Positions 40,461 through 48,489 of a DNA stretch of 48,489 nt are shown in pieces; position 1 is the stretch's first letter; every line of letters starts with the position of its first letter. The DNA comes from Lachnospiraceae bacterium. Its GTDB lineage: Bacteria; Bacillota; Clostridia; Lachnospirales; Lachnospiraceae. The stretch is from contig JAIKZU010000004.1 in NCBI GenBank assembly GCA_024681985.1, forward strand, positions 1 to 48,489, in the 5' to 3' direction. Under the pieces are notes generated by a model. It did not search any database. It was not told the DNA's origin and was given only the letters and a program-made list of their open reading frames with translations. The translations under genes and the position numbers were made by a program.

Positions 40461-41702
40461 ATGAACCTACGTAACATACTTATAAATGTCCTTCGGACCA
40501 AAATACTGCCCATCTTTACACGGATGCAGCTTCTGTTAAACCCCCGGTTCATGGCCGGACGTATAACAGAATTTGTCCGCGGGTTTATCCAGAAGGTCTT
40601 AGACATCCGTCCACGGCACAAGGACGATTATTATCCCATTGGCCGTTGGCTGGTTTCCAAGCGACTGGCCTATGCCGTGGTGATCGTCGCTGCAGTTCTC
40701 TGTATCGTCTATATCGTCAGCCAGAAGAACGCGCTGTTTCCCAGCTTGAACGATGACCATATCAAAACCTATAACTACAATTCCATTTTGCTGAAATACG
40801 CCAAAGGAAAAGTTCGCATTCGCGGAAAATCCGGGTGGCTGGCTTATGAAGGAGAAGTTTCGGATGCCGCCTGTAACGGCAAGGGAACCCTCTTTAATCC
40901 TGAAGGTACGGTGATCTACGAAGGAAACTTCGAATCCAGTATGTACGAAGAGGACGGCACCCAGTATTATGATTCCGGCGCTTTACACTACGAGGGCAAG
41001 TTCCACGAAAACGAATACTCCGGCGAAGGTAAACTGTTCAGGGAGACCGGAAGCCTCGAATATGAAGGAGACTTTTTCCATAATGCCAAGGAAGGAAGCG
41101 GCATCCTCTACAACCTAAGCGGTGAGGAGATCTACAACGGACAGTTCACCCAGGATGAGATCAATTACTCCTATATGGTGGGTAAATCCGCAGCGGAGAT
41201 GGCTGCTATTTACAGCGGTGAGCGGACGCTTTACGAGGCGGAGACGGAACGTGTCCGTGTCATGGATGAGATAGGTGTCATGACCGAGGAGATTCAGGAT
41301 GAATCCTCCGTGGATGATATGGCCACTGTCAGTGCCGTTTACGTCATGGACAATACCATCCGTATCGGCAATCAGGATTACAATAGTTTCGATGGTTTGG
41401 AACAAGCTTTGGGAGAAGCTACTTACGTGGGTGATTCCTATGCCACCCTGCCGGAGCTTATGATCATCAACCGCTTAAACGAAGCTTCCAGCGTCAGTGT
41501 CATGAACGGTGTGGCGGAAGTAGTAGAGAACGAAGTCTACACGGAGTACACGGAAGTGGCTTCCTATGATACGGATTACGTGGTATATCTGCATTCCTAT
41601 GAACGGGACGGTCTGGTCTACAACTTCGTATCCATGCCGGAGGATGAAAACTTCTCCTTCTATTACATCCTGCAGAGAAATGCCAGCGATGACGCTGCAT
41701 AA
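40461..41702 (+). CDS. Single-TM MORN-repeat protein
   Basis: Repeats YEGEVSDAACNGKGTLFNPEG/YEGNFESSMYEEDGTQYYDSG/YEGKFHENEYSGEGKLFRETG/YEGDFFHNAKEGSGILYNLSG; TM LAYAVVIVAAVLCIVYIV. Confidence 0.8.
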   Translation: MNLRNILINVLRTKILPIFTRMQLLLNPRFMAGRITEFVRGFIQKVLDIRPRHKDDYYPIGRWLVSKRLAYAVVIVAAVLCIVYIVSQKNALFPSLNDDHIKTYNYNSILLKYAKGKVRIRGKSGWLAYEGEVSDAACNGKGTLFNPEGTVIYEGNFESSMYEEDGTQYYDSGALHYEGKFHENEYSGEGKLFRETGSLEYEGDFFHNAKEGSGILYNLSGEEIYNGQFTQDEINYSYMVGKSAAEMAAIYSGERTLYEAETERVRVMDEIGVMTEEIQDESSVDDMATVSAVYVMDNTIRIGNQDYNSFDGLEQALGEATYVGDSYATLPELMIINRLNEASSVSVMNGVAEVVENEVYTEYTEVASYDTDYVVYLHSYERDGLVYNFVSMPEDENFSFYYILQRNASDDAA

Positions 41703-41732
41703 CGGATACGTTATGAATGAATAGGTTAACTG

Positions 41733-41775
41733 CACATCCATTTTCCTGTGAGAAAATGGATGTGTTGCTTTTATG
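41733..41775 (+). terminator. Perfect 13-bp hairpin plus T-rich tract between the MORN gene and the ABC exporter
   Basis: CACATCCATTTTC-ctgtga-GAAAATGGATGTG followed by TTGCTTTTATG. Confidence 0.7.
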
Positions 41776-41812
41776 TGAGGGAAAGAACCCTTTTTTGAAA
41801 AAGAGGAGGTCA

Positions 41813-43990
41813 ATGCCCCGAATGTCAGAAAACCCCCGGATCAAAAATAAAGGCGTGGCGAAGGTTCCTGTGATCATGCAGATGGAAAGCAGGGAATGCG
41901 GAGCGGCGTGCCTGTCTATGGTGTTGGCCTATTACGGCAGGTGGGTGCCTTTGGAGCAGATGCGCAGGGAGTGCGGTGTTTCAAGAAGCGGTGTCAGTGC
42001 CGGCTCCATCCTCCGGGTTGCCAGGGATCACGGCTGTGAAGCAAAGGGCTACACCTTAGAGACAAAGAATCTGCGTGCGTGCATACACTTTCCCTGCATC
42101 ATTCATTGGGAGTACGAGCATTTTGCAGTGCTCTGCGGCTTTAAGGGAAAGCACGCCGTGCTCATCAATCCCCGGAAGGGCATGATCCGACTGGACTTAG
42201 AGACTTTTGAAAAAAACTTTTCCGGTCTGTGCCTGGATATTTATCCCGGTAGGGATTTTCAAAAGGCAGGGAGCAGACACAGTGTCTTTTCTTTTATCAA
42301 AGACAGACTAAAGACCATGATACCGGCGGTTTCCGTACTGACGGTGGTGATGGTATTAAATTCCCTTTTCGGTTACATCGATCCCCGGATCAATCAACGA
42401 TTTTTGGATACGGTTCTGACTGCAGGAAGCGCGGAGAGACTTTATGCTTTTATCCGTCTGGCAGCACTCATAGCTTTTCTGGAGATCTGTGTGGCTTTTG
42501 CCCAGCGGATCTTTCGACTGCTGATCTCCGGCACCCTCTTCGAAAGGGAGAGCACTTCTTTCATGAAAACGCTGATGAGTCTTCCAGAGCGGTTTTACGA
42601 CCAACGGAGATCCACGGAGCTTCTTGGGCGGTTTTCCCGCAGTACCAATGTCTCTTTGGCCATTGTCAATACCTTTGCGCCTCTTTTGGTACAGTCGGTG
42701 ATGATGGTTTTCTTTCTCACGGTAATGGTACGATCCTCTTTGCTTTTGTCGGCAGTGGGACTTTGCACCGTGATCATTAATCTAGCAGTCACCCGATGGA
42801 TGGCACAACGGCGAACGGAATACGCCAGGGTGATGATCAACGATACCTCGAAGCTTAACAGCGCCACCGTTACGGGGATCGAGATGATGGAGACCCTGCG
42901 GGCTTCCGGGGCGGAAGAAGGATATCTAAAGCGCTGGAAGGGCTACCAAAAGGATATGTTTGACCGGCAGAGCGAGTTCGCAAAAAAGGATCTGTTCCTT
43001 TCCGTATGGCCTGCCTACCTTTCCGTGTTTGCCAATTATCTGGTGATGATCATCGGTGTGTACTTAACCATGCAAGGCAGCTTTACCTTGGGACTGATGA
43101 CTGCCTTCGGCGGTTATCTGTCTGCATTTTTCATGCCGGCCAATACCCTGATCGACACCGGAAAGAACATCTTTGAGATGCGGGTGGACATGGAACGCAT
43201 CCGGGATGTAACGGATTACCCGAAGGATCCGTTTCTGGAAGAAAAAACGGGACGATATAACGGAAGGCTTTCGGGAGAGGCGAGCCTTACAAGTGTCAGT
43301 TTTTCCTATGACAAAGGAGACGACCCGGCGGTAGCGGAGGTTTCATTGCGGATCACCCCCGGAAAGCGGATCGCCCTGGTGGGAAAGAGCGGCTGCGGAA
43401 AGACCACTCTGCTAAAACTTATGACGGGGATCTATCAGCCGGATGCCGGAGACATCACCTATGACGGTCATGCCCTTTTGGATATTTCCCATAAAGCTTA
43501 TACGGACAGCGTTGCCATCGTATCCCAGGACACCCGTCTTTTTGATGAGAGCATCTTGGAAAATATCCGTCTCTGGGACGAGAGCATTCCCGAAAAAAAG
43601 GTGGAGGAGGCGGCAAAAGCGGCAGCCATCCATGAAGAGATCCTGACCATGGAGGGAGGATATGCGCATCGTCTCTCAGATCGGGGATATAACCTTTCCG
43701 GAGGACAGCGGCAGCGGATAGAAATTGCCCGGGCTTTGGCAAAGGATCCGGCTCTCTTGCTTCTGGATGAAGCCACTTCAGCTTTGGATGCCCGGACGGA
43801 AAAGCAGATATTCGATTCTGTAAAAGAGAGAAAAATCGCCTGTATCATCGTATCCCATCGCATATCCGCCGTTAGGGATTGTGATGAGATCCTGGTGATG
43901 GAAAAAGGAAGAATCGTTGCCCGGGGAGCGCATGCAGCCCTTTTGGACAACTGTGAAGCATACAAAGAACTGATCGCCGATGAATCATAG
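41813..43990 (+). CDS. Peptidase-containing ABC exporter (C39 peptidase + TMD + NBD; NHLM/PCAT-type)
   Basis: VIMQMESRECGAACLSMVLAYYGRW, HWEYEHFAVLCGF; GKSGCGKTTLLK, LSGGQRQR, LLLDEATSALD. Start placed after RBS GAGGAGG. Confidence 0.9.
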   Translation: MPRMSENPRIKNKGVAKVPVIMQMESRECGAACLSMVLAYYGRWVPLEQMRRECGVSRSGVSAGSILRVARDHGCEAKGYTLETKNLRACIHFPCIIHWEYEHFAVLCGFKGKHAVLINPRKGMIRLDLETFEKNFSGLCLDIYPGRDFQKAGSRHSVFSFIKDRLKTMIPAVSVLTVVMVLNSLFGYIDPRINQRFLDTVLTAGSAERLYAFIRLAALIAFLEICVAFAQRIFRLLISGTLFERESTSFMKTLMSLPERFYDQRRSTELLGRFSRSTNVSLAIVNTFAPLLVQSVMMVFFLTVMVRSSLLLSAVGLCTVIINLAVTRWMAQRRTEYARVMINDTSKLNSATVTGIEMMETLRASGAEEGYLKRWKGYQKDMFDRQSEFAKKDLFLSVWPAYLSVFANYLVMIIGVYLTMQGSFTLGLMTAFGGYLSAFFMPANTLIDTGKNIFEMRVDMERIRDVTDYPKDPFLEEKTGRYNGRLSGEASLTSVSFSYDKGDDPAVAEVSLRITPGKRIALVGKSGCGKTTLLKLMTGIYQPDAGDITYDGHALLDISHKAYTDSVAIVSQDTRLFDESILENIRLWDESIPEKKVEEAAKAAAIHEEILTMEGGYAHRLSDRGYNLSGGQRQRIEIARALAKDPALLLLDEATSALDARTEKQIFDSVKERKIACIIVSHRISAVRDCDEILVMEKGRIVARGAHAALLDNCEAYKELIADES

Positions 43991-45719
43991 AGGAATGACC
44001 ATAAAAAAGCATATGGAAACAGAGCCCCTAAAGGTCCGGGACCTGTTGCGGTTTCGGCTGGAAAGTATTGCGCCTGTGGATGCTTTTGTGTTTGTTCTCT
44101 GTTCTCTGGTGGCGCTGGGACTGTCTCTTTTGGTGCCGGTGATGATCCGGGCCTTGACGGGGGAGGTGCTGGAAAGGGGAAGCCTTCTTTTGCTTATGGG
44201 AGTGGGAGTGGTGCTCCTTTCTTCCGCTCTGTTTGAAGAACTCATAAAGATCCCCAAGTCTCTGGCGGGACTTCGTCTCCGGAGAAAGACCAAAAACGCT
44301 TTGGAGGAAACTCTTATGCGTCGGGTCCTAAACCTGCCCATCGATGTGGCAAAACGTTATCCGGTGGGAGAATTGAAAAAACGAATGGAGGATGCGGCAG
44401 AACTTTCCGATGTGGGGATGGATACAGCCATTGCTTTAAGCACCGGGATCTTTACCGCAGCCGCTTTTTTTATCCAGATGCTGCATTTTGAAGTCCATTT
44501 GGTGGCACCGGCTTTTTTGATCCTGGGAGTGACCATAGTCCTTACGGTAATCAATGCCCGTGCCCTCACCGGACAGAAAGCAAAGATCCAGCGGTCGGAA
44601 GCGGATCTAAGCGGTGTGGAGCTGGAGATGCTTTCCGCCCTGACAAAACTCAAGCAGACCGGAGCCGGAGAGAGAGCATACCACCGTTGGGAAGAAAAGT
44701 TTTTAAAAAATGTAAAGGATACCTATGCGCCCCCGGTTTTCCTTCGCGTCATGCCGGTGTGCATCACCGCCGTTAAACTTTTAGGTACGTTGCTTTTATA
44801 CGCGGCAGCAGCATCATGGGGCACGAAGACTGCGGACTATCTGGCGTTTTTGGCTGCTTACGGCGGCATGACCGCCGCTCTTTTGTCCCTTACGGAGTTG
44901 TCCGGAAAGATCGCGGAGATCCCCTCGCTATATGAGATGGCCTCTCCCATTTTAGATGTGGCACTACCGAAGGAAGCAGAACGGCCACCGGTAGAACCTC
45001 TTAAGGGAGACATTAGCATACGGGATTTAAGCTTTTCCTATGTGCCGGGGATCCCGGTGATCCGGGGACTGAATCTGGATATATCTGCCGGCGAATGCAT
45101 CGGTATTGCCGGGGCTACGGGCTGCGGAAAGACCACCCTGGTCCGTCTGCTTTTGGGACTTTTGACCCCTTCGGAGGGGAGCATCGCCTATGACGGTGCC
45201 GATATGAAAAATCTGGATAAAACTACCCTTCGCCGACAGATGGGGACGGTGATGCAGGACGGATTTTTGATGGCGGACGATATCCGCTCCAATGTGGCGC
45301 TGACCCGGCCGGAAGCTTCAGATGAGGAGATATGGGAAGCTCTGGATGCCGTGGGGATGAAAGACTATATCGAAGAGCTGCCACCGGGACTGGATACCCA
45401 AATCTACGAAAACGCCGGCGGTTTTTCCGGAGGGGAAAAAGCCAGACTCATGATCGCCCGGGCACTTTTGAACAAGCCGAGGATCCTGCTTTTGGACGAG
45501 GCCACAGGACCTTTGGATGTCAGGACGGAGCGAAGGGTGATGGATGCCGTCAAAGGTTATGGGGGAACAAAGATCATCGTGGCGCACCGCCTGTCAGCCT
45601 TAAAAAACTGCGACCGGATCTGTTATATGGAAAAAGGTTGCATAAAAGAGTGCGGAACCTTTGAAGAATTAGTGCAAAATGACAGAAAATTTGCTAGAAT
45701 GGTAAAAGGGCAATTTTGA
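43980..45719 (+). CDS. Second ABC exporter subunit (TMD+NBD), probable heterodimer partner
   Basis: GATGCGKTTLVRLLLG, FSGGEKARLMIARALL, LLLDEATGPLD, IIVAHRLSAL; start overlaps the upstream gene (alternative ATG 43995). Confidence 0.85.
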   Translation: MNHRGMTIKKHMETEPLKVRDLLRFRLESIAPVDAFVFVLCSLVALGLSLLVPVMIRALTGEVLERGSLLLLMGVGVVLLSSALFEELIKIPKSLAGLRLRRKTKNALEETLMRRVLNLPIDVAKRYPVGELKKRMEDAAELSDVGMDTAIALSTGIFTAAAFFIQMLHFEVHLVAPAFLILGVTIVLTVINARALTGQKAKIQRSEADLSGVELEMLSALTKLKQTGAGERAYHRWEEKFLKNVKDTYAPPVFLRVMPVCITAVKLLGTLLLYAAAASWGTKTADYLAFLAAYGGMTAALLSLTELSGKIAEIPSLYEMASPILDVALPKEAERPPVEPLKGDISIRDLSFSYVPGIPVIRGLNLDISAGECIGIAGATGCGKTTLVRLLLGLLTPSEGSIAYDGADMKNLDKTTLRRQMGTVMQDGFLMADDIRSNVALTRPEASDEEIWEALDAVGMKDYIEELPPGLDTQIYENAGGFSGGEKARLMIARALLNKPRILLLDEATGPLDVRTERRVMDAVKGYGGTKIIVAHRLSALKNCDRICYMEKGCIKECGTFEELVQNDRKFARMVKGQF

Positions 45720-45755: not shown

Positions 45756-45798
45756 TGGCTGTGATAGGATGTGCATAGAATTAAGGAGGAGAAGTGCC

Positions 45799-46134
45799 AT
45801 GAAACAGATGGAGCGCTATATTAAAACCTTAACCCCCGAATTGCAGGCAAAGATGCGGGGGGCAAATACCGTAGAGGATGTCTTTCGTATAGCCCGACAG
45901 GAAAACATGGAACTTCCCGAGGAAGCGTTGGATTCCATATACGGTGGTTGCGGCACTTCCTATACATGGAAATACGAAGAATACTATAAATGCAGGATCT
46001 GTGACAGCAAGGTCAGCTTAAAGTCTGTGGGACATGATGGATTTCCCGATGTGTACTATTGCCCGAACTGCCTGACCACAAAGGACGAGACCGAGGTATA
46101 CCACTTCAGCCGCTCGTGGCAGGAGATCAAGTAA
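45799..46134 (+). CDS. Nif11-like double-glycine leader peptide precursor with Cys4 (CxxC...CxxC) zinc-ribbon-like core
   Basis: Leader MKQMERYIKTLTPELQAKMRGANTVEDVFRIARQENMELPEEALDSIYGG, then 61-aa core CGTSYTWKYEEYYKCRICDSK...VYYCPNCLTTK...; RBS AAGGAGGA 8 nt before ATG. Confidence 0.75.
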   Translation: MKQMERYIKTLTPELQAKMRGANTVEDVFRIARQENMELPEEALDSIYGGCGTSYTWKYEEYYKCRICDSKVSLKSVGHDGFPDVYYCPNCLTTKDETEVYHFSRSWQEIK

Positions 46135-46164: not shown

Positions 46165-48489
46165 TTGAAACATATGGGTTTTGGAAAAATATATAAGCGG
46201 ATCATCAGCATTATGCTTGCAGTTGCGCTGCTCTCGGGCAGCTTTTCTTCGACTTCATACGCAGCGGTGACCATTTCCCACAGTGAAAAGTCTACGAGCC
46301 TGGATCTTTTAATGGAAGTTGCTTCCGCAAACCTGGCCGTCTATGGTATGCAAACCACCAAAGAAAATGTTAAAAAAGCTCTTTTGGCAGCAGGCTATGA
46401 ACATGATCTTTTGCTCATCAGCGAAGACGAACGGGAGTCTTTTGAGGCATCTCTCACGGGATGGATCACTGTCGACAGTGACACAGAAGAGGATTCAGAG
46501 ATACCTCCCGCTAAGGTGGATCAGATTACTTCTGTTACCATTAACGATATCATCAATAAGCTGGTGGATCAGTACAATACCGCAAACGGTTGGGATATTG
46601 CGACAAAAGAACCCTTGCAGATCACTGATCCGGAGACGGGGAAGGTATCCCAGGGTTCCACCACAGCCAAGTATGTCACCTTTGATGCGGCCAAGGGATT
46701 ATCCTATGCCGGTTCGGTGCTGACCACCGGATATACCTACGGGGGGATGATGGTTGAGTATGTCCGTGAGAAGGATCCTTCCGTCAGAGTCATGTATAAC
46801 GACGATATCCTTTCGGCCATCAAGGAAAAAGTGACCACGGACACACCGGACGCCTCCATGTCGGATATCCTTTCTGCCGTACATGAGCAGGCACAGCTTG
46901 TCAGAGATACATATTCCAGCGGCACGGACAAGGACTACATAACCGAGTTTTTAGGCAAGCATGCCGTGACATATTTTGAATACACCGATGGCGGAGTCGA
47001 CGAAAGCAAGGTCCCGGCGGGAACCCTTTTTATCGGGACTTTTCTCATCGATGCCCAGACGGTAAATGACGTGTATTACCGTTACGCAAAGGACAGCATG
47101 GGCATGGCGAACCAGCCCATCATGTATTACAAATCCGAACTGGATGAAGGTCACTGGAAAGATATCGTTTCCGCAGTGGGACTGACGGATATCCTGCCTG
47201 CATCCGCCAACGTGGAAACTGCTGATCTGATGCGCCGCAACATCACCTGCGTCATCGGAAGTGACGGTATTCCCAGATACCCGGATGACGGAACGGAAGC
47301 GGATATCTTTACCATGTCAAATCCCTACGACATGGCGCAGGTACCGGAACTTTTACCTCTAAAGACACTTTTGGATTCCGGTGCCGTAAGCCAGAATACT
47401 TCCGATATATCCAACCGCTATGCGGCAGATGCGTTGTTCCGTTTTTTTAATTATGACGGATGCGGCGATAACGATTCCATGATGATCATCAGGAACAAAG
47501 CTTATCGGGATTATCTTTACGACCATTCGGATGCGGAGACCATCAAAAAAACCACCGGACCCAATCCCATCAAGCGGGCGGTGCCGGTAAACATCACACA
47601 GGAAGAGATGGATTACATCGTTTCCATGACCACACAGCAGTTAAAGCTGGAGTGTAACATGCCCCAGTGCGAGGATAAATACGCAGGGCACGGAGATGCT
47701 TTTTATGATCAGATCCTTGCCTGGGCAGAGTACTACGGGAACGATAAGTTCAAGATCAATAATACCTACGGTGGGAACGTATCCCATCCCTACATCTTTC
47801 CCATTGAGGATATGGCAGCCTCCGAATGGGAATTGGATAACCGGAGAGCCGATTGGAAGAACCCCCAGAGTTATATGATCATCATCAACGGCAAGATCGG
47901 AACCGATGATCAGAAAGCTTTTGTTGACAGATGGCTGAAAGACAGCACATATTTGGCTCCGGACAATATAACCTATACAATGAGCGGACAGTTTGCTGCC
48001 AATCACGGTGATAACATCAACGATATGTTTTACGCCTATACCGGGCTGAACTATTGGGGCGGAGATACTTCAACAAAATTCGAACTAGGCAGTAAATGGA
48101 ATGAGTTCTCCATCATGATCTACCACTTCATGGATTGGATGCGAAATATGTACGACATCCGAGACGAGGAAACGGATAAGACAGACCAGACTTTACGGGA
48201 ATTAAATGCGCTCTATCGTCAGAAGAGAGATATCGCAAATACAGTAGATGAAGAGGAAGAAGGAGAGGATGAGGAAAGCGAAGAAGCCAAAGCAGCCAGA
48301 GCAGCCAGAGCTACGGCCAGGGAAAATGCCAAGAACGAAGCAGATACGCTGATGCGGCTCATGAGCCGTGTGGATGCCACCCGGCGGGCTCGGATCTATT
48401 ACAACCTGGTCTACAATGAAAAGAATAACTACATCGTGGGACCCACGCTGCCCTACTTATTAAACCTTTTGGAAAACGGTATCGGCCCC
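46165..48489 (+). CDS. Large signal-peptide-bearing exported protein of unknown function (3' truncated by window edge)
   Basis: TTG start with GAGGAG RBS; (M)KHMGFGKIYKRIISIMLAVALLSGSFSSTSYAAVT signal peptide; open to the window end (775 codons). Not in the ORF track, presumably because no stop is reached. Confidence 0.75.
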   Translation, partial: MKHMGFGKIYKRIISIMLAVALLSGSFSSTSYAAVTISHSEKSTSLDLLMEVASANLAVYGMQTTKENVKKALLAAGYEHDLLLISEDERESFEASLTGWITVDSDTEEDSEIPPAKVDQITSVTINDIINKLVDQYNTANGWDIATKEPLQITDPETGKVSQGSTTAKYVTFDAAKGLSYAGSVLTTGYTYGGMMVEYVREKDPSVRVMYNDDILSAIKEKVTTDTPDASMSDILSAVHEQAQLVRDTYSSGTDKDYITEFLGKHAVTYFEYTDGGVDESKVPAGTLFIGTFLIDAQTVNDVYYRYAKDSMGMANQPIMYYKSELDEGHWKDIVSAVGLTDILPASANVETADLMRRNITCVIGSDGIPRYPDDGTEADIFTMSNPYDMAQVPELLPLKTLLDSGAVSQNTSDISNRYAADALFRFFNYDGCGDNDSMMIIRNKAYRDYLYDHSDAETIKKTTGPNPIKRAVPVNITQEEMDYIVSMTTQQLKLECNMPQCEDKYAGHGDAFYDQILAWAEYYGNDKFKINNTYGGNVSHPYIFPIEDMAASEWELDNRRADWKNPQSYMIIINGKIGTDDQKAFVDRWLKDSTYLAPDNITYTMSGQFAANHGDNINDMFYAYTGLNYWGGDTSTKFELGSKWNEFSIMIYHFMDWMRNMYDIRDEETDKTDQTLRELNALYRQKRDIANTVDEEEEGEDEESEEAKAARAARATARENAKNEADTLMRLMSRVDATRRARIYYNLVYNEKNNYIVGPTLPYLLNLLENGIGP

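What the first reader, a model, noticed from the sequence alone, without database searches (positions are those of the whole stretch)
45799..46134. Nif11-like double-glycine leader fused to a Cys4 zinc-ribbon-like core, next to a C39 ABC exporter and with no visible modification enzyme
Seen: a 50-aa leader ending IYGG and a 61-aa core with C1 plus CRIC-(19)-CPNC. Established: Nif11-type leaders with GG motifs are processed and exported by C39 peptidase ABC transporters, usually for ribosomally synthesised modified peptides. Here no LanM, radical SAM, YcaO or similar enzyme is in the window, and the core looks like a metal-binding knuckle instead of a lanthipeptide or TOMM core. Inference: this may be a secreted, possibly Zn-binding, unmodified peptide or small effector.
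Basis: partly seen in the sequence, partly recalled or inferred. Interest (0 to 1): 0.78.

Follow-up and report, generated by a model that had tools for sequence, protein, structure and literature searches.

The report
Exported zinc-ribbon peptide with relocated maturase
A gut Lachnospiraceae genome encodes a small precursor whose leader is that of an exported, usually enzyme-modified peptide and whose payload looks like a tiny zinc-binding protein; its likely radical-SAM modifying enzyme lies elsewhere in the genome, and the gene sits inside a phage-tail-like injection gene cluster.

Summary
In detail: 111 aa, 50-aa leader ending IYGG, 61-aa core with C1 + CRIC-x19-CPNC, directly after a C39 ABC exporter pair. 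It is conserved (45-52% identity) in two related genomes. The leader is Nif11-type, shown through relatives: Pfam Nif11 matches 19 of 20 family members but not this one. About 30 precursors from several genera combine such a leader with a Cys4 zinc-ribbon-like core; one genome alone has about 20. All 30 keep the C39 recognition residues (-4, -7, -12), and 28 have a fifth Cys within four residues of GG. Both syntenic relatives have a radical-SAM/SPASM gene directly upstream of the exporter. This genome carries its orthologue (71% identical) on another contig, and the window exporter's N-terminus retains what looks like a fragment of it. In a class-level sample of 292 genomes, strong hits to precursor and enzyme fall in the same four genomes. 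In this clade the cassette sits within an extracellular contractile injection (eCIS) locus; elsewhere it does not. Best reading: a radical-SAM-modified, exported zinc-ribbon miniprotein, a new variant of the Nif11-class RiPP. Zn binding, modification and function are not shown.

The parts
45799..46134 (+). precursor gene, 111 aa (Nif11-type leader + Cys5 zinc-ribbon-like core)
45783..45789 (+). ribosome-binding site AAGGAGG
   Evidence: sequence
45799..45948 (+). leader, 50 aa, ends IYGG; L-12, L-7, I-4 as needed by a LahT-type C39 peptidase
   Evidence: motif rules from PMC6363468
45949..46131 (+). core, 61 aa: C51 (codon 45949), C65 (45991), C68 (46000), C88 (46060), C91 (46069); conserved VGHDGFPDVY between the two CxxC pairs
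41717..43990 (+). ABC1: C39 peptidase + permease + ATPase (NHLP-type exporter)
41720..41788 (+). N-terminal extension of ABC1 resembling residues 27-49 or so of the radical SAM enzyme: probable remnant of a deleted maturase gene
42167..42169 (+). ABC1 Asn151 at the place of the C39 catalytic Asp (Cys61 and His135 kept; Asp in five relatives)
43980..45719 (+). ABC2: permease/ATPase without peptidase (NHLP-type)
40461..41702 (+). 413-aa membrane/MORN-like protein, syntenic; in L008 the radical SAM gene follows it
46165..48489 (+). start of a large secreted protein (continues on C116); first of two such genes before the eCIS structural genes

Best explanation
45799-46134 encodes a precursor of the Nif11 class. 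The 50-aa helical leader is read by a dedicated radical SAM/SPASM enzyme (encoded in trans here, in cis in relatives), which modifies the core; my guess for the target is the extra Cys just after GG. The core is a small Cys4 zinc-ribbon-like miniprotein. The C39 domain of ABC1 cuts after GG, and the ABC1/ABC2 pair exports the 61-aa product. Shown: the gene, its conservation, leader homology, GG plus C39 recognition residues, exporter linkage, and enzyme presence, synteny and co-occurrence. Inferred: modification, cleavage, export, metal binding. Unknown: biological role. Expansion to about 20 variable cores in one genome suggests a diversifying secreted peptide (competition or signalling).
For: A leader profile built without the eCIS-type members finds all three of them at 2e-13, 4e-9 and 1.5e-6; best of 900 shuffles 0.04. 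Pfam Nif11 matches 19/20 members, and several zinc-ribbon Pfams match cores. 30/30 precursors keep hydrophobic -12, -7 and -4; 28/30 have a Cys within the first four core residues. rSAM directly before ABC1 in L008 and L009; orthologue in this genome on C207 with matching composition. ABC1 N-terminal remnant: score 56 against a maximum of 48 in 30,000 shuffles, and apart from itself its five best hits among 2,341 ORFs are these rSAM enzymes, though each weak (E 0.02-0.27). rSAM next to such precursors in G019 and, in another family, G697. Class sample of 292 genomes: rSAM E<1e-50 and precursor E<1e-10 in the same four, two of them outside the training set (chance about 2e-5, relatedness ignored).
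Against: Core homology between the eCIS-type and the other cores is not detectable by sequence (E 5.5 or none); only the Cys layout is shared. The AlphaFold model of the core is poor (pLDDT about 30-55). P0001 itself matches no Nif11 model. The C39 Asp is Asn here. G656 has precursors without a close enzyme, and G422 has one without a strong enzyme hit. The enzyme family also occurs with a probable LanM and a different Nif11 peptide (G294), so it is not exclusive to zinc-ribbon cores.
Confidence: 0.62

Rival explanations
1. One reading: a secreted Zn-binding miniprotein that needs no modification. The radical SAM enzyme on C207 serves another peptide or is a leftover.
For: The enzyme is gone from the locus here, leaving only a fragment. 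G656 has two such precursors in a STAS-HlyD-ABC1-ABC2 operon with no enzyme. Zinc-ribbon cores are plausible without modification.
Against: The enzyme is kept intact in this genome and co-occurs with the precursors in other genomes. No other precursor was found in this genome with the family profiles, although an unrelated substrate would be missed. The G656 cores lack the extra Cys near GG.
Confidence: 0.22
2. The Cys residues are not metal ligands: the radical SAM enzyme cross-links them (thioether, sactipeptide/ranthipeptide-like) and the CxxC pattern only looks like a zinc ribbon.
For: The enzyme's nearest solved relatives by sequence include SkfB and SuiB, and the sactipeptide maturases StsB and AlbA appear among its weak family hits.
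Against: Non-eCIS cores keep CPxCG...CxxCG with zinc-ribbon Pfam matches. Loop length varies (14-27) while both CxxC pairs are kept, as in zinc ribbons.
Confidence: 0.1
3. An intracellular zinc-ribbon protein or a structural/regulatory part of the eCIS, with a fortuitous GG.
For: The gene lies in the eCIS locus. Ordinary intracellular zinc ribbons are weak hits of the family profile.
Against: Leader homology to Nif11 leaders, C39 motif 30/30, exporter adjacency; relatives with the same architecture have no eCIS sheath (G296, G305, G019).
Confidence: 0.06

Closest known systems
Nif11-class (N11P) RiPP precursors, TIGR03798/PF07862 (Haft 2010, PMC2887384); prochlorosins (ProcA); LahA peptides of Lachnospiraceae C6A11 (PMC6363468)
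   Same: Nif11-type leader, GG, C39/NHLP exporter; paralogue expansion with constant leader and variable core; one enzyme for scattered precursors (inferred here)
   Different: Cores are Cys4 zinc-ribbon-like miniproteins of about 35-70 aa; a radical SAM enzyme instead of LanM in most; P0001 itself is below every Nif11 model threshold
Nif11/NHLP peptides with a radical SAM as sole maturase (TIGR04064 type, Haft 2011, PMC3023750; TIGR04103)
   Same: Nif11 leader with an rSAM/SPASM enzyme and the same type of exporter
   Different: This enzyme family scores far below every peptide-maturase equivalog cut-off; zinc-ribbon cores are not mentioned in the passages read
NHLP exporter pair TIGR03796/TIGR03797; PCAT1, ComA and LahT C39 transporters
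   Same: Domain order, C39 domain, two-ABC arrangement; near full-length match to PCAT1 (1.6e-86)
   Different: Below the equivalog cut-offs; C39 Asp replaced by Asn; no HlyD-like gene adjacent in the window, unlike G296, G305 and G656
eCIS loci (Pvc16, PAAR/DUF4280, sheath, gp19 tube, gp25, AAA+)
   Same: Structural gene set downstream
   Different: I know of no described eCIS locus with a RiPP-type precursor, exporter and radical SAM cassette; the full-text searches made found none

Membership tests
Nif11-class RiPP precursor (TIGR03798 / PF07862) | leader matches the curated model | tested here: inconclusive
   P0001 no match; L009 19.7 bits against 23.8 and L008 14.9; 19/20 family members match Pfam Nif11 at E<=0.05; a G019 leader passes TIGR03798 at 39.7 against 32.3; leader profile links the eCIS-type leaders
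Nif11-class RiPP precursor (TIGR03798 / PF07862) | GG-type cleavage site with C39 recognition residues | tested here: met
   I-4, L-7, L-12; 30/30 family members (rules from PMC6363468)
Nif11-class RiPP precursor (TIGR03798 / PF07862) | linked NHLP-type exporter | tested here: met
   ABC1 and ABC2 directly upstream
Nif11-class RiPP precursor (TIGR03798 / PF07862) | post-translational modification of the core | not testable with these tools
   enzyme present in trans; no mass data
NHLP exporter (TIGR03796/TIGR03797) | score over the equivalog cut-off | tested here: not met
   726 against 853 and 423 against 709: relatives, not formal members
NHLP exporter (TIGR03796/TIGR03797) | C39 Cys-His-Asp triad in ABC1 | tested here: not met
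   Cys61, His135, Asn151; Asp in five relatives
Radical SAM/SPASM peptide maturase | CxxxCxxC and SPASM cysteines, N-terminal leader-binding domain | tested here: inconclusive
   rSAM and SPASM matches in 8/8, motifs in the alignment; conserved N-terminus of about 85 aa but no RRE/PqqD model match and no usable structure model
Zinc ribbon | two CxxC knuckles with zinc-ribbon family match | tested here: inconclusive
   met for several G296-type cores; the P0001 core has the knuckles only; fold model poor
eCIS (genomic setting) | sheath, tube, gp25, Pvc16, PAAR and AAA+ genes | tested here: met
   (the AAA+ match is in the L008 genome; in this genome that gene is cut by a contig end)

The most novel reading that the evidence does not exclude
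A class of exported, radical-SAM-modified, metal-binding zinc-ribbon miniproteins, diversified from one Nif11 leader. The radical SAM enzyme modifies the extra Cys after GG, and in one clade the peptide has been recruited to work with an extracellular contractile injection system.
Probability: 0.15. Interest if true: 0.85.

Novelty: new variant of a known kind. Interest (0 to 1): 0.62.

Why it matters
Most known RiPP cores are short and unfolded before modification (own knowledge). A family whose cores look like folded Cys4 miniproteins, with one enzyme in trans and about 20 variable cores in one genome, would be a natural library of secreted metal-binding scaffolds and a new substrate type for radical SAM enzymes. 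Its place inside an eCIS locus gives a testable link between peptide export and a contractile injection machine in gut Lachnospiraceae. It also shows that absence of a modification enzyme in a window is weak evidence: the enzyme can be encoded elsewhere.

Tried and rejected
AlphaFold of the precursor (3 sequences) gave pLDDT 56; leader helices plausible, core unreliable, and the PDB fold search of it found nothing. AlphaFold of the radical SAM enzyme (2 sequences) gave pLDDT 44 and was not used. A core-only profile from G296, G305 and G019 does not find the eCIS-type cores, so core homology is not claimed. Weak profile hits in G434, G316, G173, G175 and G114 look like ordinary intracellular zinc ribbons and were dropped. 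Contamination as the source of contig C207 was considered and rejected: GC 0.484 against 0.493, tetranucleotide correlation 0.949, within the spread of window pieces. The DNA-level comparison of the ABC1 extension with the enzyme gene found nothing; the remnant claim rests on protein similarity and position only. The promoter/terminator scan found nothing beyond shuffles for promoters. Literature: no paper in the held library with Nif11 plus zinc ribbon or zinc finger, nor contractile injection system with Lachnospiraceae and radical SAM; subscription papers are not covered.

Full report
Observation. The ORF is as described, with a good ribosome site, normal codon use and orthologues at the same place in two other Lachnospiraceae genomes (L008, L009 = G007). 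Invariant among the three are GGC at the cleavage site, both CxxC pairs and VGHDGFPDVY between them.

Leader. Relatives supply the link. A search of 397 Lachnospiraceae genomes with the three-sequence profile found G296, which carries about 20 peptides with leaders such as MREELLKGLTEEQIKKVKACKNAEEILALAKEEGVQLSDEQLEAVSGG followed by CPxCG...CxxCG cores, and G305 with one. A leader profile from G296, G305 and G019 finds the three eCIS-type leaders far above shuffles. Pfam Nif11 matches 19 of 20 members, and a G019 leader passes TIGR03798. The residues that the LahT C39 peptidase needs (PMC6363468) are present in all 30 precursors compiled.

Core. Zinc-ribbon families match many of the cores, and the family profile resembles RPB9/TFIIS ribbons weakly. 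The eCIS-type cores share only the Cys layout, not detectable sequence similarity. 28 of 30 cores have an extra Cys in the first four residues. The two exceptions are the G656 peptides, whose genome has only a distant enzyme (32% identity) in a different cluster. This is a hint, on few genomes, that the extra Cys is what the enzyme acts on. G422 has such a Cys without a strong enzyme hit, so the rule is not strict.

Maturase. In L008 and L009 a 475-487-aa radical SAM/SPASM protein lies directly upstream of ABC1; in L008 it follows the MORN-like gene. In the window that slot is empty, but the genome has the orthologue on contig C207, beside secG, rnr and smpB. The first 24 residues of the window's ABC1 align with residues from about 27 to 49 of the enzyme (AHPFSCEKMDVLLLCEG against AIPLTDEEFDLMLLCDG). 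No shuffle of 30,000 reached the score, and a search of 2,341 ORFs returned these enzymes as the best five hits after self, each on its own weak (E 0.02-0.27). I read this as the remnant of a copy once in cis; it is an inference from a 23-residue match and its position. Beyond Lachnospiraceae, G697 has enzyme and precursors side by side, as has G019 within the family. In the class-level sample the strong hits to the two families fall in the same four of 292 genomes. Because G000 and G305 were in the profile, only G656 and G697 count as independent (1 in about 42,000 by chance, relatedness ignored).

Exporter. ABC1 and ABC2 are NHLP-type by best match but below the equivalog cut-offs. The catalytic Asp of C39 is Asn151 here and Asp in five relatives. 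A Cys-His-Asn triad works in other cysteine proteases (papain; own knowledge), but activity here is untested.

Setting. C9 joins C116 by an exact 141-base overlap, and C116 continues into C40 by a shared PAAR stretch. Together they give two large secreted proteins, Pvc16, PAAR, sheath, tube, spike/OB protein, gp25, baseplate-like proteins and STAS, with an AAA+ gene in the L008 genome. The sheath is present in G000, G007 and the L008 genome and absent from G296, G305, G019 and G294. The peptide cassette is thus independent of eCIS and lies inside that locus in one clade. Whether the two work together or are only co-regulated is open; partner-switching genes (STAS, PP2C, RsbW-like, ECF sigma) accompany both the eCIS locus and several exporter operons (most named from sequence by eye, STAS by Pfam).

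Verdict. Not an artefact, and not an ordinary intracellular zinc ribbon. It is a Nif11-class exported precursor of a variant with zinc-ribbon-like cores, most likely modified by a radical SAM enzyme in trans. Modification chemistry, metal and role need experiments.

Noticed in passing
window 42167-42169: C39 catalytic Asp of ABC1 is Asn (AAT) while five relatives keep Asp.
   Followed up: partly
window 41720-41788: N-terminal extension of ABC1 looks like a remnant of a deleted radical SAM gene.
   Followed up: yes
L035-L041 (genome G296): About 20 scattered precursors with near-constant Nif11-type leader and variable zinc-ribbon core; reminiscent of prochlorosins.
   Followed up: partly
L058:12199-12456, L060:4332-4637, L134:7526-7816: Small protein with LSDDELDMVSAAG or a similar motif near its end, near the radical SAM/exporter operon in three genomes; a possible second substrate or regulator.
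   Followed up: no
L058, L059, L060, L123, L134, L104: Partner-switching regulators (STAS, PP2C-like, RsbW-like, ECF-sigma-like) repeatedly next to NHLP-type exporter operons and also in the eCIS locus.
   Followed up: no
L009:3088-4257: 390-aa protein with a weak PI3/PI4-kinase match just upstream of the radical SAM gene; HipA-like proteins lie near the G296 enzyme too (L058:12507-14106).
   Followed up: no
L124 (G656:C11): Separate cluster with Cys-rich Nif11-type peptides, radical SAM genes, a YcaO-like gene and an exporter.
   Followed up: no
L059 (G294:C5): Nif11 peptide beside a probable LanM and the same radical SAM enzyme family: a mixed maturation cluster.
   Followed up: no
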